Shown one piece after another: positions 1,950 through 28,085 of a stretch of 28,174 bases of DNA. This DNA is from a bacterium. GTDB taxonomy: Bacteria; JAHJDO01. The notes under the pieces are model-generated. The model made no database searches, was not told the origin of the DNA, and saw only the letters and a list, made by a program, of their open reading frames with translations. The DNA lies in assembly GCA_030611945.1 (NCBI GenBank), contig JAUWOV010000010.1:1-28174 (forward strand). Reading direction: 5' to 3'. Position numbers and translations under genes: made by a program. Numbering within the stretch: the first letter of the stretch is position 1; each line of letters begins with the position of its first letter.

Positions 1950-1960
1950 CTACATTTAAC

Positions 1961-2003
1961 CCGATTTCCGCATTGTAGGGACGGCGCTTGCCTCCGCCCG
2001 TCC
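1961..2003 (-). repeat. GC-rich hairpin repeat, copy 2
   Basis: On the minus strand this reads GGACGGGCGGAGGCAAGC, then GCCGTCCCTACAATGCGG and AAATCGGG. It is nearly identical to copy 1 and in the same orientation. It follows directly after an orphan start site at 2024. Confidence 0.85.
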
Positions 2004-2074: not shown

Positions 2075-2178
2075 ACAGGCACAGAGGCACAGAGTTAGTA
2101 GAATGGCAGACGTTTTTGCTTTGTGCCTTTGGAACTTTGTGCCTATTCTTTCGTTTGCCTCTGTCACTTTGTGCCTTT
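2075..2178. repeat. GGCACAGAG/CTTTGTGCC inverted-repeat hairpin, solo copy A
   Basis: Left arm GGCACAGAGGCACAGAG (from 2077) faces several right-arm units of CTTTGTGCC up to about 2176, with about 25 unrelated bases between. The stretch carries no gene. It lies just beyond the 3' end of the DUF1015 gene. It shares its arm sequence with the repeats flanking the four-helix-bundle gene (27035-27486) and with copy B at 20489. Confidence 0.8.
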
Positions 2179-3559: not shown

Positions 3560-3570
3560 AAAAATGGAAA

Positions 3571-3611
3571 CGGGCGGAGGCAAGCCCCGCCCCTACAATG
3601 TGGAAATCGGG
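3571..3611 (+). repeat. GC-rich hairpin repeat, copy 3
   Basis: CGGGCGGAGGCAAGCCCCGC then CCCTACAATGTGGAAATCGGG on the plus strand. It lies in the leader of the gene starting at 3623, in the same orientation relative to that gene as the other copies. Its terminal GGG merges with the Shine-Dalgarno GGGAAGG. Confidence 0.85.
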
Positions 3612-4468: not shown

Positions 4469-5880
4469 TGCCTGAGCAGCTGCCGCAGGATAGAATAAAG
4501 AACTTTAATGAGGTTGCCCTTGGATATACCGAGGATCAAGCAGTTGCAGAGGCAAAAAGATGTCTGCAATGTAAAAAAGCTCCGTGTATGCCGGGATGCC
4601 CTGTAGAAATAGATATTCCGGGATTTATAGAACTTATTGCAAAACGCAAGTTTTCCGAGGCGCTGAATATACTAAGAGAGAAGAATAATCTTCCTGCTAT
4701 TTGCGGTCGTGTTTGTCCTCAGGAGACACAATGTGAAATAGTATGTACTTTGAAGAAAAAGGGAGAACCTGTTGCAATTGGGAGGTTGGAAAGATTTGCC
4801 GCAGACTGGGGGAGAAAGAATAGACGACAGACCACAGACCATAGACCACAGACAACAGGCGAAAAACCGCGAGCAGCAGTTATAGGGGCGGGACCGGCCG
4901 GGTTGACATGCGCTGGGGATCTGGCAAAAACAGGTTGGAAGGTTACTATCTTTGAATCTTTGCATGCGCCTGGAGGGGTGTTAAGATACGGTATTCCTGA
5001 ATTCAGGATGCCGAGAGATGTTCTTGATTATGAGATAGAATATGTTAAAAATCTGGGAGTAGAGATTAAGACAAATATTATAGTTGGAAGAACTGTTACA
5101 ATTGAGGAATTATTTGACGCAGGTTACAAAGCTGTATTTATTGGTACAGGCGCAGGATTTCCGTATTTTTTGGGAATACCGGGTGAAAATTATAATGGTG
5201 TTTATTCTGCCAATGAATTTCTTACAAGAGCAAATCTTATGAAGGCTTACAAGTTCCCTGAATATGACACTCCGATCAAGGTAGGAAAGAAGGTTGCTGT
5301 AGTTGGGGCAGGGAATGTGGCTATGGATTCAGCAAGAGTTGCGCTGCGTCTTGGAGCAGAAAAGGTTTGCATAATCTATCGCCGTTCGCGTTCTGAAATG
5401 CCTGCGAGAGCTGAAGAGATCCATCATGCAGAAGAAGAAGGAATAGAACTTAATCTGCTTACATTGCCTATTGAGATAATTGGGGATGACAAAGGCTGGG
5501 TCAAGCAGATGAGATGTCTCAAAATGAAACTTGGAGAACCTGACGATTCAGGAAGAAGAAGACCTGTCAAAATAGATGGGTCAGAGTATTTGGAAGACAT
5601 AGATACAGTAGTTATTGCAATTGGGCAAGGACCGAATCCGTTATTGTTATCCCAAACTTCCGGACTGAAGCTGAATAAAAGAGGAAACATAGTTGCCGAT
5701 GATATTACAGGAGAAACCTCTCTTGAGGGAGTATACGCTGGAGGGGACATTGTAACAGGCGCAGCTACAGTAATTGAGGCTATGGGAGCAGGTAAGAGAG
5801 TTGCCAGAGCTATAGATAACGGCGTAAATTCGAAGCACGAAGCACGAAATACTAAACAATATCAAATGACCAAAATATAA
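4450..5880 (+). CDS. NADPH-dependent glutamate synthase small chain-like subunit (NfnB/SudA/GltD family)
   Basis: A 476-residue partner of the preceding subunit. ATG 4450 lies 8 bases after AAGGAG; ATG 4444, also possible, would be only 2 bases from it. The N-terminal Fe-S domain has CLQCKKAPCMPGCPVEIDIP and CGRVCPQETQCEIVC, the two four-Cys sets for 4Fe-4S clusters. Then come the FAD Rossmann motif VIGAGPAGLTCA, the NAD(P) motif VAVVGAGNVAMDSARVALRLG with YRRSRSEMPAR, and the C-terminal VYAGGDIVTGAATVIEAMGAG. Two parts appear repeat-derived. RRQTTDHRPQTTGEK (about 125-139) sits exactly in the linker between the Fe-S and FAD domains. The last 17 residues (NSKHEARNTKQYQMTKI) are encoded by the palindromic repeat starting at 5827. 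Catalytic motifs are intact, so the gene is probably functional. Confidence 0.9.
   Translation: MQKRLLMPEQLPQDRIKNFNEVALGYTEDQAVAEAKRCLQCKKAPCMPGCPVEIDIPGFIELIAKRKFSEALNILREKNNLPAICGRVCPQETQCEIVCTLKKKGEPVAIGRLERFAADWGRKNRRQTTDHRPQTTGEKPRAAVIGAGPAGLTCAGDLAKTGWKVTIFESLHAPGGVLRYGIPEFRMPRDVLDYEIEYVKNLGVEIKTNIIVGRTVTIEELFDAGYKAVFIGTGAGFPYFLGIPGENYNGVYSANEFLTRANLMKAYKFPEYDTPIKVGKKVAVVGAGNVAMDSARVALRLGAEKVCIIYRRSRSEMPARAEEIHHAEEEGIELNLLTLPIEIIGDDKGWVKQMRCLKMKLGEPDDSGRRRPVKIDGSEYLEDIDTVVIAIGQGPNPLLLSQTSGLKLNKRGNIVADDITGETSLEGVYAGGDIVTGAATVIEAMGAGKRVARAIDNGVNSKHEARNTKQYQMTKI
4823..4855 (+). repeat. ACCACAGACC-type tandem repeat within coding sequence
   Basis: GACGACAGACCACAGACC followed by ATAGACCACAGAC: degenerate copies of a roughly 9-10 base unit in frame inside the NfnB-like gene. 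It encodes RRQTTDHRPQTT between the Fe-S and FAD domains. Confidence 0.75.
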
Positions 5881-5960
5881 ATGTTCAAAACAACGTTTTG
5901 AATTTTGAGAATTAGAATTTTAAATTTGTTTCGAGTTTCGGATTTAGGATTTCGAGTTTT
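5827..5960. repeat. Long imperfect palindromic repeat, copy D1
   Basis: Begins AATTCGAAGCACGAAGCACG and ends near GGATTTCGAGTTTT, with a central hairpin TTCAAAAC-AAC-GTTTTGAA at 5884-5902. Outer parts are also roughly complementary (TTCGAAGCACGAAAT against TTTCGAGTTTCGG). A close second copy, D2, lies at 17879-18012. The left end codes the C-terminal tail of the NfnB-like protein. The element fills the whole 96-base gap before the racemase gene. Confidence 0.85.
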
Positions 5961-8042: not shown

Positions 8043-8072
8043 AGCAAGGCACAAAAAGTCCCCCTTTGAAAT

Positions 8073-8112
8073 TTGACATATATGCATGTTTGATGCATAA
8101 TAATGCATATAT
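8073..8112 (+). promoter_or_regulatory. vapBC promoter with palindromic operator
   Basis: TTGACA (8073-8078), 17-base spacer, CATAAT (8096-8101). Inside lie TATGCAT-GTTTG-ATGCATA and a longer inverted repeat, TATATGCAT ... ATGCATATA. This is the expected place for VapB-VapC autoregulatory binding, covering the -10. A near-identical copy occurs at 11385-11421. Confidence 0.65.
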
Positions 8113-8134
8113 ATTATATGAAAGGAGTTGCTAT

Positions 8135-8326
8135 ATGAGAACAACATTAAATATTAAAGACGACTTGATAAAAAAGGCATCAAGGCTTACTGGAATCAAT
8201 GAAAAAACCACTCTGGTCAGATTAGGTTTGGAAGCATTAATTGCTCGAGAAGGAAGCAAAAGACTGGCTAAATTAGGAGGGAGTGAAAAGAACTTACATA
8301 TTATACCCCGCAGGAGAGTGAATTAA
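8135..8326 (+). CDS. vapB: VapB-type antitoxin
   Basis: A 63-residue protein beginning MRTTLNIKDDLIKKASRLTG, the ribbon-helix-helix opening of the VapB antitoxin family that pairs with PIN toxins. The start at 8135 is set by AAAGGAG 8 bases upstream; the longer open frame to 8066 only reads the operator. The N-terminus would bind the palindrome at 8073-8112, and the basic C-terminal part would neutralise VapC. Its stop overlaps the toxin start by one base (TAATG), so the two are co-translated. Confidence 0.85.
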   Translation: MRTTLNIKDDLIKKASRLTGINEKTTLVRLGLEALIAREGSKRLAKLGGSEKNLHIIPRRRVN

Positions 8327-8697
8327 TGGTTCTTGTTGATACATCAATATGGGTTTCTCATTTACGCAATGGTAATTCTAAACTAGAGCAGTTCCTGAAT
8401 GATGGAGATGTAGTTTGCCATCCTTTTATTATTGGAGAACTTGCATGCGGCAATATTAAGAACAGGAGGCTAATTCTATCATTGCTTAGTTATCTCCCCA
8501 TTGTTGACATGATAGATAATGAGGAAGTATTGTTATTTATTGAAAAACAGGACTTAATGGGTAAAGGGGTTGGTCTTATTGATGTTCATATTCTTGCAAG
8601 TGCGCTATTAAGCGAGGTTCCTTTATGGACATTGGATGTCAAGTTACAACACGAAGCTTCTATATTAGGGATAGCGTATCATATAAATATTACATAG
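8326..8697 (+). CDS. vapC: VapC-type PIN-domain ribonuclease toxin
   Basis: A 123-residue PIN-domain protein. Acidic active-site residues are visible: Asp in MVLVDTSIW, Glu in IIGELACG, Asp in GLIDVHILASAL and Asp in LWTLDVKL. VapC toxins are Mg2+-dependent RNases that usually cut tRNA or rRNA; the target here is unknown. The length is normal and the motifs intact, so it is presumably active with the upstream antitoxin. It forms a two-gene operon with vapB. Confidence 0.88.
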   Translation: MVLVDTSIWVSHLRNGNSKLEQFLNDGDVVCHPFIIGELACGNIKNRRLILSLLSYLPIVDMIDNEEVLLFIEKQDLMGKGVGLIDVHILASALLSEVPLWTLDVKLQHEASILGIAYHINIT

Positions 8698-10138: not shown

Positions 10139-11056
10139 ATGAAAAAATTAGTTTTGGTTGCTTTGGCGGTTTTAAGTTCTGTTTTCTTTGCAGGATGCGC
10201 AACATACAGGCTTGTAGGAGTATCAGTGCAAACGGATATTAATAGAGATGTTTTTTCTGAAACAACCAAGGTTCCTGATTTTCAGCAGCGCATGGAAAAA
10301 TACAAGAATATTGTAGTAAGTCTTCCAAAGGATTATTATGACTCAGGTACTACTTCAGCAAGTAAAGGCATAAGCGGGGCAGAAGTTCTTCTTAGGGAAT
10401 CGCATGCTTTATGGATAACGGAGATTGAGCGGGAATTTCTGAAGAAAGGATATCGCGTACTCTCCAGACAAAAATATCAGGAACTGCTTAGAGAAAAGAA
10501 AGTCAAGACTTCAAAGGAAGCTGGAGCTTTGCTTGGAGCTGACATAATCGTGCAAATTAATTCGCTGGAATATAATCCAAAGGTATCAATCAAGCAGAAG
10601 ACAAAAGCGGACTTGAGCTTCTATAAATCTAACTCAAAAGGCAGGAAAAAGGGGATTATGGCAGTCTCGCCGAAAGAGGCAAAGATCTTGTCGGATATGG
10701 TAAGCTGGCTTGTTGACACCAGCTTTGAACCGTTTGCGTATATGGCTCTTCTTGATTGCAAGCTGATTGACGCCAAAACAGGTGAGATTGTCTTTTTCTA
10801 CAAAACACAGCTTCTCAGATTAAAATCCGGACGTGAGCCACGCATGGAAACAAGTTACCTTTTTAGACGTCTTGATTCAAAATGGCAGCACCTGCGTTTA
10901 CCTAAGCAGGGGAAAACGGCCAAAGAAAAAGTGCTGACTTTCCAAATACATGCACAAGCAGGTGGAACCAGAGAAGCTTCACAGTTGATTCAGTCAGAAA
11001 TGATCCGCACAATATGTTCCGACTTTGCGAGCAATCTTCGAGGTCGCGGCAATTAA
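10139..11056 (+). CDS. CsgG-like outer-membrane-type lipoprotein
   Basis: A 305-residue lipoprotein with signal MKKLVLVALAVLSSVFFAGC and Cys20 as anchor. ATG 10139 is preferred over 10136 because of its spacing from AGGAG. The middle has EREFLKKGYRVLSRQKYQELL, then KTSKEAGALLGADIIVQINSLEY. This resembles the pattern in CsgG and related lipoproteins, where a helix and 'R.kl..ll.e' lead to 'lgad.ii.g.i'. It continues with YMALLDCKLIDAKTGEIVFFY, also typical. Such proteins act at the outer membrane in secretion or envelope processes. The match is by motif memory only, so the family is likely but not certain. Confidence 0.65.
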   Translation: MKKLVLVALAVLSSVFFAGCATYRLVGVSVQTDINRDVFSETTKVPDFQQRMEKYKNIVVSLPKDYYDSGTTSASKGISGAEVLLRESHALWITEIEREFLKKGYRVLSRQKYQELLREKKVKTSKEAGALLGADIIVQINSLEYNPKVSIKQKTKADLSFYKSNSKGRKKGIMAVSPKEAKILSDMVSWLVDTSFEPFAYMALLDCKLIDAKTGEIVFFYKTQLLRLKSGREPRMETSYLFRRLDSKWQHLRLPKQGKTAKEKVLTFQIHAQAGGTREASQLIQSEMIRTICSDFASNLRGRGN

Positions 11057-11066
11057 TACTTGGAAT

Positions 11067-11095
11067 GGGCGGAGGCAAGCCACGCCCCTACAATG
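11067..11095 (+). repeat. GC-rich hairpin repeat, copy 4, ending in a start codon
   Basis: GGGCGGAGGCAAGCCACGCC then CCTACAATG. The closing ATG (11093-11095) is the natural start of the following lipoprotein frame. No Shine-Dalgarno is present; the repeat occupies its place. Confidence 0.85.
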
Positions 11096-11384: not shown

Positions 11385-11421
11385 GACATATATGCAGGTT
11401 TGATACATAATAATGCATATA
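11385..11421 (+). promoter_or_regulatory. Second copy of the vapBC promoter/operator
   Basis: 35 of 37 bases match 8075-8111 (GACATATATGCA-x-GTTTGAT-x-CATAATAATGCATATA). The -10 CATAAT is kept and the -35 becomes TAGACA. No vapBC genes follow; the next start is the radical SAM gene at 11441 with AAGGA 8 bases before it. Confidence 0.75.
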
Positions 11422-17868: not shown

Positions 17869-17878
17869 AAAAGCATTA

Positions 17879-18012
17879 AATTCGAAGCACTAAGCACGAA
17901 ATACTAAACAATATTAAATAACAAAAATTCAAATGTCCAAAACAATGTTTTGAATTTAGAAAATTAGAATTTAGAATTTGTTTAGGGTTTCGGATTTAGA
18001 ATTTGGGATTTA
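17879..18012. repeat. Long imperfect palindromic repeat, copy D2
   Basis: Starts AATTCGAAGCACTAAGCACG and ends near TTTAGAATTTGGGATTT, with central hairpin CAAAAC-AAT-GTTTTG. It matches copy D1 (5827-5960) along its length with scattered changes. It lies between the consensus promoter and the tRNA. Confidence 0.85.
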
Positions 18013-20483: not shown

Positions 20484-20488
20484 AATAA

Positions 20489-20567
20489 GGCACAAAGTGA
20501 CAAAGTTACAAAGGCACAAAGAGAGCAAAAAGCATAAACTATGTGCCTTTTGTGCCTATGTGCCTCT
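20489..20567. repeat. GGCACAAAG/CTTTGTGCC inverted-repeat hairpin, solo copy B
   Basis: Left arm GGCACAAAGTGACAAAG then TTACAAAGGCACAAAG. About 20 bases later come right-arm units TGTGCCTTTTGTGCC and TATGTGCCTCT. It sits inside the pilus operon between pilO and the pilP-like gene, with no gene of its own. Same family as 2075-2178 and the flanks of the four-helix-bundle gene. Confidence 0.8.
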
Positions 20568-25072: not shown

Positions 25073-26189
25073 ATCCATAATCACTATAAGTTTTTTTATA
25101 TGTATTAGTTTTGCCAGTGATTCTTTTTGCGAATTTTCTTCTGCAAGAGAATTAATGTTTGACTATAAACTTAACAGCGCGCTAACTGCATTTTCAAGAA
25201 TAAAAAAAGAACAAAAAAAATACCTGCAGGCAAGAATAAACATGGGGCTTATCTGCGAAAAGTTAGCTAAATTTAATGAAGCAAAGAAATATTTTCGTGA
25301 TGTAATGGAAAATGACAAGGAAAACAGGTATAAGGGTTTCGTTCAATGGCATTTAAAATATTGTAAAAATATCTATATAAAAGAATCTCAAAAATTAAGA
25401 GATATAAAAACAGGTTGCGTATTGCAAGATTTAGCTGACAGAAAACTTGAGGCTTTGAGTAATGACACATCCAGGAGAGGTAAATTCATTATTGTTTCCC
25501 ATAATAAGCATATTGGCGAACTGGTTGAGAAAAGTCTTGAGAAGAATGTTAGAAAAATATTTGATACTTTTCTTAATAGAGGATATACAAATTGGAATAC
25601 GAAAAAGCGGATTGTTTTTATTTTTTATGACGCTCAGGAATTTGCTGCAGAGACAGGATCAAATGCGTTAGCTTTTTGCAGATATATTCCCAAGCAAGGA
25701 CAGCAGATGTTGTGTTTTAACCAAAGCGATGGAGAATTATTGGATAATACGATACCACATGAACTAACGCATGCTGTATTATTTGAAATAATTGGTCCCG
25801 GAGTAGCTAATTTACTTTGGCTACATGAAGGAACAGCAAGCTACCATGAATATAGAATGGGTTATTATAAACGATTGGTTAGAAAAGCGATAGAAAATGG
25901 AGAATATATACCAATAAGGGAATTGTTTTATATGAAGAAATATCCAGACACTTCTAAAATGAACACGCTTTTTTATGCAGAATCAGCAAGCGTGGTAGAT
26001 TTTCTTGTTAATTGTTATGGAAAAGACAATTTTGGTTTATTTATTAGTTTTATGAGCAGATTGAGAGATTATAATTATGACACTGTCAGGATACTGAGAG
26101 GAGTGTATGCTCATGATTTTAATTTGAATAATCTGACAGATTTTGAACGAAAATGGAAAGCTTATGTTAGGGGAAATTATAAAACGTGA
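25050..26189 (+). CDS. Exported gluzincin-type metallopeptidase with TPR-like N-terminus
   Basis: 379 residues. Signal peptide (KSIITISFFICISFASDSFC), then a helical TPR-like segment at about 30-105 (ARELMFDYKLNSALTAFSRI ... KFNEAKKYFRDVMENDK), then the peptidase domain. It has HELTH at 237-241 and Glu260 in WLHEGTASYHEY. The middle SRRGKFIIVSHNKHIGELVEK matches the opening of the upstream protein's domain (KQETKNFIIYHHN). So it is a paralogue with an added N-terminal module. It overlaps the upstream gene by 23 bases and the next gene by GTGA, so all three are probably co-transcribed. Confidence 0.82.
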   Translation: MKYRKLNKSIITISFFICISFASDSFCEFSSARELMFDYKLNSALTAFSRIKKEQKKYLQARINMGLICEKLAKFNEAKKYFRDVMENDKENRYKGFVQWHLKYCKNIYIKESQKLRDIKTGCVLQDLADRKLEALSNDTSRRGKFIIVSHNKHIGELVEKSLEKNVRKIFDTFLNRGYTNWNTKKRIVFIFYDAQEFAAETGSNALAFCRYIPKQGQQMLCFNQSDGELLDNTIPHELTHAVLFEIIGPGVANLLWLHEGTASYHEYRMGYYKRLVRKAIENGEYIPIRELFYMKKYPDTSKMNTLFYAESASVVDFLVNCYGKDNFGLFISFMSRLRDYNYDTVRILRGVYAHDFNLNNLTDFERKWKAYVRGNYKT

Positions 26190-27028
26190 AGAAAGCCTTA
26201 TATCTTATAGATGGCAATTCATACGCTTACAGGTCTTTTTACGCTATAAAGGATTTGAAGACAAAGGAAGGACTGCCGACAAACGCTGTGTATGGATTTA
26301 CTGTTTCGCTTACAAAAATATTGCGCATGAAGAAACCGGATTATATTGGAGTAGTTTTTGATCTGCCGGAGCCTACTTTCAGGCATAAAGAATTTGCTTC
26401 TTATAAAGCGAATCGCCCTAAAATGCCGGATGATCTGATTATCCAGTTTCCAATACTTAAGGAGGTTATCCGCGCTTTTAATATTCCTATCTTTGAGCTG
26501 GGAGGATATGAGGCGGATGATATTCTTGCTACACTTGCCAAAGAGGGAGAGAAAAAGGGGCTTGATGTATTTGTTATGAGTCCTGATAAAGATCTTCTGC
26601 AGATTGTAACTGACAATATTAGGGTTGTACGTCCTATTAAAGGAGACACTATTTTTAATAGGAACAAGGTTCGCGAAAAATATGGTGTTGAGCCTGAAAA
26701 ACTTGTTGATATTGCGGCTCTTGGAGGAGATAGTTCTGATAATGTTCCAGGAGTTCCTGGGATTGGAGAAAAAACAGCTATGAAACTGATTAAGCAGTTC
26801 GGTGATCTAAAAGGGGTTTTGAAAAATATAGACAAAATACCGAACGAAAGGATTAGGAAAAATTTGGAACAGTATTCTCATCAAGCGGAATTAAGCAGAA
26901 GGTTGGTTTGTCTGGATATGAATGTCCCAGTCAGAATATGCTGGGAAGATTGCGCAGTAGTGGATTTTGATAAAAAACAAGTTAATAGGCTTTTTGCGGA
27001 ATTGGGGTTTAATAAACTGATTTTGTAA
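26186..27028 (+). CDS. DNA polymerase I 5'-3' exonuclease domain without polymerase
   Basis: 280 residues, start GTG 26186 overlapping the upstream stop. All the acidic metal-binding residues of the 5' nuclease are present: Asp9 (LIDGN), Asp59 (VFDLPEPTFRHK), Glu109/Asp111/Asp112 (YEADDILA), Asp134/Asp136 (SPDKDLLQ) and Asp182/Asp185 (LGGDSSDNVPGVPGIGEKTA). In a normal PolA (about 900 residues) the 3'-5' exonuclease-like and polymerase domains follow. Here the protein ends at LFAELGFNKLIL, the usual last motif of the nuclease domain, and a GGCACAAAG repeat begins 6 bases after the stop. Its polA-coaE-rho setting suggests a truncated polA rather than a stand-alone ExoIX-type protein. It should still act as a flap nuclease. 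Confidence 0.9.
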   Translation: MKKALYLIDGNSYAYRSFYAIKDLKTKEGLPTNAVYGFTVSLTKILRMKKPDYIGVVFDLPEPTFRHKEFASYKANRPKMPDDLIIQFPILKEVIRAFNIPIFELGGYEADDILATLAKEGEKKGLDVFVMSPDKDLLQIVTDNIRVVRPIKGDTIFNRNKVREKYGVEPEKLVDIAALGGDSSDNVPGVPGIGEKTAMKLIKQFGDLKGVLKNIDKIPNERIRKNLEQYSHQAELSRRLVCLDMNVPVRICWEDCAVVDFDKKQVNRLFAELGFNKLIL

Positions 27029-27034
27029 GGGCAA

Positions 27035-27083
27035 GGCACAAAGTTACAAAGGCACAGAGGCACAAAGTTATAAAGGGACAAAG
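27035..27083 (+). repeat. Left inverted-repeat arm of the four-helix-bundle cassette
   Basis: GGCACAAAGTTACAAAGGCA then CAGAGGCACAAAGTTATAAAGGGACAAAG in pieces of the same unit. It lies between the polA fragment and the next start codon and faces the right arm at 27450-27486 in inverted orientation. Confidence 0.85.
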
Positions 27084-27085
27084 AA

Positions 27086-27445
27086 ATGGTGAAGACGTAT
27101 AGGGATTTGATTGTTTGGCAAAAATCAATGGAACTGGTAACACAAATTTATAAGATAACAAAAACATTTCCTAAAGAAGAAAACTACGGATTGATTTCAC
27201 AAATAAGACGTTGTGCTGTTTCTATTCCCAGTAATATAGCAGAGGGATATGGCAGACAGTCCACAAATGATTATCTTCGTTTCTTAAAAATATCAATTGG
27301 TTCGCTTTACGAAACACAGACTCAGCTTGAGATTGCTCTGAATCTGGAATATTTGTCTGGCGATGAATTTAAGATGATATATGAATTAAGCAGAGAAATA
27401 GAGAGGATGCTTAGTAGTTTATGCAAAAAAATAACGAACAATTAG
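27086..27445 (+). CDS. Four-helix-bundle protein, 23S rRNA intervening-sequence (S23/IVP) family
   Basis: 119 residues. YRDLIVWQKSMELVTQIYKIT at the start, QIRRCAVSIPSNIAEGYGRQS in the middle and FLKISIGSLYETQTQLEIAL are the family hallmarks; the length is typical. These small proteins form pentameric helical bundles and are encoded in insertions in 23S rRNA genes or free in genomes. A related protein, bAvd, serves diversity-generating retroelements. Biochemical function is unresolved. The gene is bracketed by inverted GGCACAAAG arms and lies between polA's nuclease part and coaE, so it appears inserted. No reverse transcriptase or transposase is near. Confidence 0.92.
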   Translation: MVKTYRDLIVWQKSMELVTQIYKITKTFPKEENYGLISQIRRCAVSIPSNIAEGYGRQSTNDYLRFLKISIGSLYETQTQLEIALNLEYLSGDEFKMIYELSREIERMLSSLCKKITNN

Positions 27446-27449
27446 GTTG

Positions 27450-27486
27450 CTCTGTGCCTCTGTGCCTTTGTGCCTCTGTGCCTTTA
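27450..27486 (-). repeat. Right inverted-repeat arm of the four-helix-bundle cassette
   Basis: CTCTGTGCCTCTGTGCC then TTTGTGCCTCTGTGCCTTTAT on the plus strand. Its reverse complement matches the left arm (27035-27083). It ends 2 bases before the coaE start and replaces any Shine-Dalgarno there. Confidence 0.85.
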
Positions 27487-27488
27487 TC

Positions 27489-28085
27489 ATGTTAATGATA
27501 ATTGGTCTAACAGGCGGTATTGCTTCTGGAAAAGATACAGTAGCAGTAATGTTTAATGATCTTGGAGCAAAGATAATAGACGCAGACAAAATAGGGAATG
27601 CCTTAATAAATGCTGGGATTAGCGGAGATAATGTTCCAGCAAAAATAGTTAGCTTCTTTGGAAATGATATTCTTAATAACTCCGGGAGGATTGATAAAAA
27701 AAGGTTAGCAGATATTGTTTTTAAAGATAGAAAAAAACTTGAGAGTCTTAATAGTTTAACGCACCCGGAAATTATCAAGAATATAAAAAAACAAATAGCT
27801 TCGCAGATTGCTTCTGTAGTTATTATTAACGCGCCTCTTATTGTAGAGGCAGACGCTATCTCGATTGTTGATAAGTTAATAGTAATTTCTGCAAGTATGG
27901 AGAACCAGATAGCAAGATTAAGAGCAAGATCATCCTTAGCCAGAGAAGAAGCCTGCAAAAGAATAAATGCGCAGATGCCAATAAAAGAAAAGGAGAAATT
28001 TGCCGATTTTATAATTGATAACAATAACGAATTAGAAGAAACAAAAAAACAAGTCAAAAAAATATGGAAGGAGTTATGCATATGA
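27489..28085 (+). CDS. coaE: Dephospho-CoA kinase (CoaE)
   Basis: 198 residues from ATG 27489 (ATG 27495 also possible). The open frame further upstream only translates the repeat (LCASVPLCLCAF). It phosphorylates dephospho-CoA in the last step of CoA synthesis. GLTGGIASGKDTVAVMF is the P-loop, DADKIGNALI the CoaE substrate motif, and LTHPEIIKNI and VIINAPLIVEAD match family positions. RARSSLAREEACKRINAQMP is the lid region. The P-loop has GKD where most have GKS or GKT (Asp16), with Thr17 next. The stop overlaps the rho start (ATGA). Confidence 0.92.
   Translation: MLMIIGLTGGIASGKDTVAVMFNDLGAKIIDADKIGNALINAGISGDNVPAKIVSFFGNDILNNSGRIDKKRLADIVFKDRKKLESLNSLTHPEIIKNIKKQIASQIASVVIINAPLIVEADAISIVDKLIVISASMENQIARLRARSSLAREEACKRINAQMPIKEKEKFADFIIDNNNELEETKKQVKKIWKELCI

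What the first reader, a model, noticed from the sequence alone, without database searches (positions are those of the whole stretch)
27035..27486. Four-helix-bundle gene bracketed by inverted repeats, with gene-less copies elsewhere: a candidate unrecognised mobile cassette
Seen: the S23/IVP-family gene lies between inverted arms made of GGCACAAAG/GGCACAGAG units. The same arms occur as solo hairpins at 2075-2178 and 20489-20567 with only about 20-60 bases between them. This mirrors a full element and its miniature derivatives. The insertion point is the end of polA's nuclease domain. Known: IVP genes move between 23S rRNA genes and occur free, with no assigned transposition mechanism. Inference: the arms are the mobile unit, and the protein either binds their hairpins or is carried along; a Y1/REP-type transposase may act in trans.
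Basis: partly seen in the sequence, partly recalled or inferred. Interest (0 to 1): 0.75.

Follow-up and report, generated by a model that had tools for sequence, protein, structure and literature searches.

The report
Widespread jumping cassette with repeat arms
A small gene of unknown role (the four-helix 'IVP' protein), found here and in bacteria of many phyla, usually sits between two mirror-image runs of 7- or 8-letter DNA repeats, and the repeats, with or without the gene, are scattered through genomes, so this looks like an unrecognised family of very small mobile elements.

Summary
Confirmed and extended. The IVP gene (27086-27445; PF05635/TIGR02436) lies between inverted arrays of the 8-nt unit AAGGCACA. 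Gene-less array pairs lie at 2077-2178 and 20488-20565. Three congeners lack the insert at the polA-exo/coaE junction; two checked also lack the 20488 hairpin. The genome has one IVP gene but about 30 array sites; one 35-nt arm recurs at 17 further sites with unrelated flanks.

New: the architecture is general. Of 79 IVP genes from named genomes of many phyla, 61 have inverted arms above the 99th percentile of same-locus controls. Unit sequences differ between elements but follow a rule (7-mers ~AGKNNYY, 8-mers ~AGKNNCAR, fixed inward polarity), and unit length clusters on the IVP protein tree across phyla. Conversely, 67 of 76 inverted period-7/8 pairs in 1.02 Mb of IVP-enriched DNA bracket an IVP gene. 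A second genome (G090) has gene-less hairpins with its own IVP units, one in about 8 near-identical copies.

Best reading: a widespread 'IVP cassette' whose protein recognises the arrays. The mobility enzyme is unknown: resident Y1/REP transposases have different ends, and no reverse transcriptase was found here. Mobility and binding are inferred, not shown. I found no prior report in the open-access library searched.

The parts
27033..27083 (+). 5' array: about 6 units of AAGGCACA-type octamer, inward-facing; its first 35 nt are a 2-mismatch copy of the dispersed solo arm
27086..27445 (+). IVP gene (23S rRNA-intervening-sequence-type four-helix bundle protein, 119 aa)
   Evidence: PF05635 E=5e-44, TIGR02436 E=4e-42; only IVP gene found in the genome; solved relatives 2gsc and 2rld
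27450..27484 (-). 3' array: inverse complement of about 4 octamer units; 35 nt, 89% complementary to 27033-27067
27029..27488 (.). approximate extent of the insertion between the polA-exonuclease ORF and coaE, by comparison with sites lacking it in G002, G003 and G004; exact ends not resolved, no target duplication seen
2077..2178 (.). gene-less array pair (solo hairpin), same octamer
   Evidence: RNA fold z=-2.8
20488..20565 (.). gene-less array pair (solo hairpin), same octamer; absent at the orthologous site in G002 and G004
   Evidence: RNA fold z=-5.2
26186..27028 (+). left host flank: complete stand-alone 5'-3' exonuclease (polA N-terminal domain)
27489..28085 (+). right host flank: dephospho-CoA kinase (coaE)

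Best explanation
This is one member of a widespread family of tiny mobile elements, here called IVP cassettes: 5'-(unit)n - IVP gene - (inverse unit)n-3', with a 7- or 8-nt unit carrying a phased AG(K) and facing inward. The arrays are the mobile and recognised part. They spread with the gene (full element), as an inverted pair without it (miniature hairpin) or as a single arm. The IVP protein, whose solved relative is a toroidal homopentamer, probably binds the array units, as single-stranded DNA or RNA or as hairpin, and pairs the two arms. That would explain why unit length and sequence follow the protein lineage across phyla. SHOWN: anatomy, generality, polarity, unit rule, absence at orthologous sites in congeners, dispersal within genomes, and protein-arm co-variation. 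INFERRED: that the whole moves as a cassette, and that the protein binds the arrays. UNKNOWN: the enzyme that cuts or joins.
For: Inverted arms around IVP genes: 17 of 27 loci of the first sample above the 99% control threshold, 1 in direct orientation, and 61 of 79 in named genomes, 10 direct. Arrays on at least one side 80% vs 6.5% of control windows, on both sides 50% vs 0.4%. Most of the highest-scoring 'control' windows bracketed a second IVP gene; a systematic scan found 67 of 76 inverted period-7/8 pairs around IVP ORFs and none in 360 kb of two array-rich genomes in which no IVP gene was found. Polarity 75:8 (5' arm) and 63:14 (3' arm). Unit rule. Unit length clusters on the protein tree (8-mers: 13 changes vs shuffled mean 18.4, 0 of 500). 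Arm and protein similarity correlate between phyla (Mantel 1 of 2000). The closest relatives, in Nitrospirota, Syntrophaceae and Elusimicrobia (71-77% identity), carry AAGGCACA-like arms too, as does the IVP of G095. Sites lacking the insert. One 35-nt arm at 17 further sites. Gene-less hairpins in G090 with its own IVP units, 8 near-identical copies of one.
Against: No transposition event, excision product or binding was observed. No target-site duplication and no recognisable nuclease or recombinase in the cassette. Arrays can be abundant where no IVP gene was found (G069: 97 matches, 0 IVP), so their spread may not need the protein, and most array sites in the own genome are single arms. 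About 20% of IVP genes lack detectable arrays. The arm-protein correlation is modest (r=0.15) and carried mainly by pairs above 60% identity; the tree has many weak forks. In-register pairing of the two arms is only weakly better than shuffled unit order. The reverse test used DNA enriched for IVP loci, and the named set is the best 80 of a truncated list of 591 hits, chosen for similarity to the window protein.
Confidence: 0.68

Rival explanations
1. RNA-level intervening sequence outside rRNA. The cassette inserts into transcribed spacers; its arms pair in the transcript and RNase III cuts the stem, so the host operon is tolerated, as in 23S rRNA IVSs. The arms are kept for pairing and excision, not for protein recognition.
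For: The element transcript folds with the arms paired end to end (z=-4.3, 0 of 100 shuffles). rRNA IVSs carry the same protein gene between complementary ends and are excised by RNase III (PMC4990558). The window copy lies between two co-directional genes.
Against: In-register pairing is only weakly favoured (5 of 73 at p<0.05). Pairing alone does not explain the shared AGK unit rule, the 7/8 period, the strand polarity, or why the unit follows the protein lineage. Single arms are dispersed too.
Confidence: 0.3
2. REP/RAYT-like system: the arrays are REP-type elements moved by a Y1 (HUH) transposase in trans, with the IVP gene a passenger.
For: All 24 IVP-bearing genomes have a Y1 gene versus 17 of 35 without IVP (p=8e-6). 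G069, rich in arrays and with no IVP found, has 6 Y1 genes. The dispersal pattern resembles REPINs.
Against: RAYT-type Y1 genes in several genomes have their own inverted ends (GGGGTCAGGTCTTGACATTTGACA type), not these arrays. The own genome's three Y1 matches are weak and have no arm-like ends. The co-occurrence may reflect genomes that tolerate mobile elements.
Confidence: 0.15
3. The arrays are locally generated slippage repeats (heptamer SSRs as in Xanthomonas and Nostoc) and IVP genes merely accumulate next to them.
For: Heptamer arrays are over-represented in some genomes and can form convergent pairs (PMC4692102); array-rich genomes without a detected IVP gene exist.
Against: The 35-nt arm recurs with the same order of variant units and sharp ends in unrelated flanks. 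Gene-less hairpins share one loop sequence in 8 copies. Inverted pairs around IVP genes are far above control and largely IVP-specific.
Confidence: 0.07
4. TRAP-like autoregulation: the arrays in the IVP mRNA are binding sites through which the ring-shaped protein controls its own translation; mobility is secondary.
For: Phased AG, median 4.4-4.7 units per arm, pentameric relative (PMC4990558); the last 5' unit overlaps the ribosome-binding region (sequence). TRAP binding to repeated (G/U)AG is from my own knowledge.
Against: Does not explain the downstream array, gene-less copies, or dispersal. No expression data.
Confidence: 0.15

Closest known systems
23S rRNA intervening sequences (IVS) with an S23p/IVP ORF (Coxiella, Leptospira, Salmonella)
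   Same: Same protein family, complementary ends that fold into a long stem, sporadic distribution; mobility proposed in the past (Burgin 1990, Ralph and McClelland 1993, as reviewed in PMC4990558)
   Different: Here between protein genes; arms are tandem 7/8-nt arrays; gene-less dispersed copies exist
Tandem heptamer repeats: STRR of cyanobacteria, GGGAATC of Xanthomonas (PMC4692102), TAACTGA of Beggiatoaceae (PMC4679880)
   Same: Short 7-nt arrays dispersed between genes; convergent pairs noted in Xanthomonas
   Different: No link to IVP genes found in those two papers; whether their arrays flank IVP genes could not be tested here
REP/REPIN elements with RAYT (Y1) transposases
   Same: Small dispersed palindromic units, also in inverted pairs
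   Different: No Y1 gene in the cassette; RAYT genes examined have different ends
MITEs
   Same: Gene-less inverted-repeat derivatives in several copies
   Different: No transposase-bearing parent, no target duplication seen; ends are degenerate arrays
Avd of diversity-generating retroelements
   Same: Homologous four-helix protein (bAvd model E=1e-8, below its cut-off)
   Different: No reverse transcriptase found in this genome and no DGR

Membership tests
IVP / TIGR02436 four-helix bundle protein | Match above curated cut-off over full length | tested here: met
23S rRNA intervening sequence | Located inside a 23S rRNA helix | tested here: not met
   Lies between polA-exonuclease and coaE; no rRNA match in L001
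23S rRNA intervening sequence | Complementary ends pairing into a stem | tested here: met
   z=-4.3
23S rRNA intervening sequence | Excised from RNA by RNase III | not testable with these tools
   needs RNA data
REP/RAYT | Y1 transposase gene flanked by the same ends | tested here: not met
   Y1 genes of G000 and of eight other genomes: own ends or none, no matching arrays
REP/RAYT | Co-occurrence with a Y1 gene in the genome | tested here: met
   24 of 24 vs 17 of 35
MITE | Terminal inverted repeats, gene-less, several copies | tested here: met
   for the gene-less pairs:
MITE | Target-site duplication | tested here: inconclusive
   none visible; spacer in congeners too diverged
Diversity-generating retroelement (Avd) | Reverse transcriptase in the genome | tested here: not met
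   no RVT_1 match in G000, 91% complete
Tandem heptamer/STRR arrays | Tandem 7-nt units dispersed between genes | tested here: inconclusive
   met for most related loci; the window copy has 8-nt units
IVP cassette (proposed here) | IVP gene between inverted, inward-facing 7/8-nt arrays | tested here: met

The most novel reading that the evidence does not exclude
IVP proteins are the specificity factor of a transposase-less class of mobile element spread over many bacterial phyla. Ring-shaped IVP oligomers read arrays of a lineage-specific 7- or 8-nt unit, and these arrays, with or without the gene, account for many of the unexplained heptamer repeats and hairpins of bacterial genomes and for the origin of 23S rRNA intervening sequences.
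Probability: 0.35. Interest if true: 0.9.

Novelty: new variant of a known kind. Interest (0 to 1): 0.76.

Why it matters
IVP/S23p proteins have no known function, and dispersed heptamer repeats have been described without an agreed cause. A tight, polarity-conserving, cross-phylum link between the two gives each a testable role. It predicts a ligand for the protein (its own array), a discriminating experiment (7-mer versus 8-mer clades), and a possible origin for rRNA intervening sequences. It would also define one of the smallest gene-bearing mobile elements (about 450 bp), moved by an unknown mechanism.

Tried and rejected
Generic AG-every-7 pattern over 59 genomes: too noisy against its reversed control. 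Protein alignment of 20 IVPs too diverse for the search for related loci, replaced by 5 sequences. The first array null was contaminated, probably by IVP arms and codon-period repeats, and is not used; replaced. Reverse transcriptase as partner (Avd analogy): no association (7 of 24 vs 9 of 35) and none in this genome. Y1 transposase acting on the arms: ends do not match. Strict RNA-stem selection: only a weak in-register signal. Arm-less IVP loci as rRNA IVSs: no rRNA found in the eleven tested.

Full report
Observation. The window holds an IVP gene (27086-27445, 119 aa; PF05635 E=5e-44, TIGR02436 E=4e-42) between a 5' array of about six units (27033-27083) and a 3' array of about four inverse units (27450-27484). 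The first 35 nt of the 5' array are 89% complementary to the 3' arm. The unit is eight bases, AAGGCACA with variants. Fifteen window matches to GGCACARAGNNAC (up to 1 mismatch) compare with 0.42 expected. Gene-less pairs of the same arrays lie at 2077-2178 and 20488-20565. The neighbouring 'polA' is a complete stand-alone exonuclease, not a truncated polymerase: it ends at the same place in three congeners.

In the own genome (1.66 Mb, 91% complete) there is one IVP gene but 60 array matches at up to 1 mismatch, none for the reversed pattern. These fall in about 30 sites, of which one encloses the gene, about five are gene-less pairs and the rest are single arms. One 35-nt arm, AAGGCACAAAGTGRCAAAGGCACATAGGCACAAAG (up to 5 mismatches), recurs at 17 further sites besides the two IVP arms. 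Unit order is mostly conserved, the ends are sharp and the flanks unrelated, often A-rich on the 3' side. Local slippage does not readily give this; copying does.

Sites lacking the insert. Three same-genus genomes (G002, G003, G004) have the exonuclease and coaE (82-87% DNA identity) separated by only about 30-110 nt without gene or arrays. The gene-less hairpin at 20488-20565 is likewise missing from the orthologous spacer of G002 and G004. These are absences at orthologous sites; which state is ancestral was not formally tested, though absence in several congeners favours gain in this lineage. Exact ends and a target duplication could not be established, because the spacers have diverged.

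Generality. Reading the flanks of IVP genes in unrelated genomes showed that most are bracketed by inverted arrays of other units, for example GGTAAAG, AGAAGAC, GGGATTA, GTAGGTC. In the first sample 17 of 27 loci exceed the 99th percentile of same-locus control windows, 1 in direct orientation. In loci of named genomes from Bacteroidota, Bacillota, Planctomycetota, Pseudomonadota, Thermodesulfobacteriota, Acidobacteriota, Nitrospirota, Verrucomicrobiota and others, 61 of 79 do. With a separate measure, 80% of 109 IVP genes have a period-7/8 array on at least one side and 50% on both, against 6.5% and 0.4% of control windows; other periods are rare (7%).

Specificity. Most of the best 'control' windows of the named set turned out to enclose a second IVP gene. 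A scan of 1.02 Mb of fetched DNA found 76 inverted pairs of period-7/8 arrays at cassette spacing. Of these, 67 enclose an IVP ORF, and several of the other nine lie beside IVP arms or between two of them. Two array-rich genomes in which no IVP gene was found (360 kb sampled) have single arrays but no such pair. The scanned DNA was enriched for IVP loci, so the ratio is not a genome-wide rate. One pair (L154, 4234-4785) lies inside a long ORF and encloses no gene of its own.

Unit rule and co-variation. Of 75 clear units, 63 contain AG, which is the most conserved dinucleotide in 35. Seven-mers approach AGKNNYY and eight-mers AGKNNCAR. The 5' arm carries AG on the coding strand in 75 cases and CT in 8; the 3' arm is the mirror image, 63 to 14. 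The 8-nt label needs 13 changes on the protein tree against a shuffled mean of 18.4, none of 500 as low, although the tree is weakly resolved. Arm similarity rises with protein identity between phyla (Mantel r=0.15, 1 of 2000). Cross-phylum pairs above 60% identity have mean arm similarity 0.52 against 0.24-0.28 elsewhere. The closest relatives of the window protein, in Nitrospirota, Syntrophaceae and Elusimicrobia, carry AAGGCACA-like arms too, and so does the only IVP gene of G095, from another group. In G090 several IVP genes each have their own unit. The unit therefore follows the protein more than the host.

Gene-less copies elsewhere. In 0.27-0.5 Mb of G090 the period-7/8 arrays found are gene-less hairpins or single arms. 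Two hairpins use the AGAACAA unit of its IVP locus L095, and others use the GGTTATTG/GGTCATTA octamer of its IVP locus L099. One of these shares a loop that occurs 8 times in the genome at up to 2 mismatches, none for the reversed pattern.

Mechanism. No nuclease or recombinase lies in the cassette. Y1 genes occur in all 24 IVP genomes of the sample (17 of 35 others; p=8e-6), but RAYT-type Y1 genes have their own inverted ends of the GGGGTCAG type, and those of this genome have none that resemble the arms. Reverse transcriptases show no association and none was found here. The cassette transcript folds with the arms paired (z=-4.3), so RNA excision as for rRNA IVSs is possible, but the two arms are only weakly in register. 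What fits best is that the protein reads the units: the solved relative XCC0516 is a toroidal homopentamer (PMC4990558; 2gsc), and arms have a median of 4.4-4.7 units. The parallel with TRAP, a ring that binds repeated AG triplets, is my own inference.

Prior knowledge. rRNA IVSs were proposed to be mobile long ago (reviewed in PMC4990558). Heptamer arrays are known in Xanthomonas, Nostoc and Beggiatoaceae (PMC4692102, PMC4679880). I found no paper in the searched open-access library that links the two; most subscription journals and preprints were not searchable.

Verdict. The cassette reading is well supported, protein-array recognition is likely but unproven, and the Y1-in-trans idea is not supported by end sequences.

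Noticed in passing
window 1960-2001, 3570-3611, 1813-1849, 11052-11095: A second family of dispersed G+C-rich inverted repeats (TTTCCGCATTGTAGGG-CGG-GCTTGCCTCCGCCC type), unrelated to the arms.
   Followed up: no
window 5825-5959 and 17877-18011: A 135-nt direct repeat, 87% identical.
   Followed up: no
window 8066-8697; repeat 8075-8111 and 11385-11421: VapB/PIN toxin-antitoxin pair whose start overlaps a 37-nt sequence repeated (95%) at 11385-11421.
   Followed up: no
L202-L220 (G044, G033, G022, G018, G025): RAYT-type Y1 genes (about 317 aa) have inverted ends of the type GGGGTCAGGTCTTGACATTTGACA; the inner part is often two copies of a short heptamer-like unit, a possible parallel to the IVP arms.
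   Followed up: partly
L154:4234-4785: A gene-less pair of 7-nt arrays lies inside a long ORF resembling UDP-GlcNAc 2-epimerase and is translated in frame as repeats.
   Followed up: partly
G069 (L221-L229), G051 (L230-L238): Genomes with many single 7/8-nt arrays, often mosaics of different units, but no IVP gene detected; in G051 several arrays end in AAAAGACGTA or similar.
   Followed up: partly
L079, L082, L021: Three solo arms are followed by the same A-rich stretch and hairpin AAAAGTCCCCCTTTGAAGGGGGA, another dispersed repeat.
   Followed up: no
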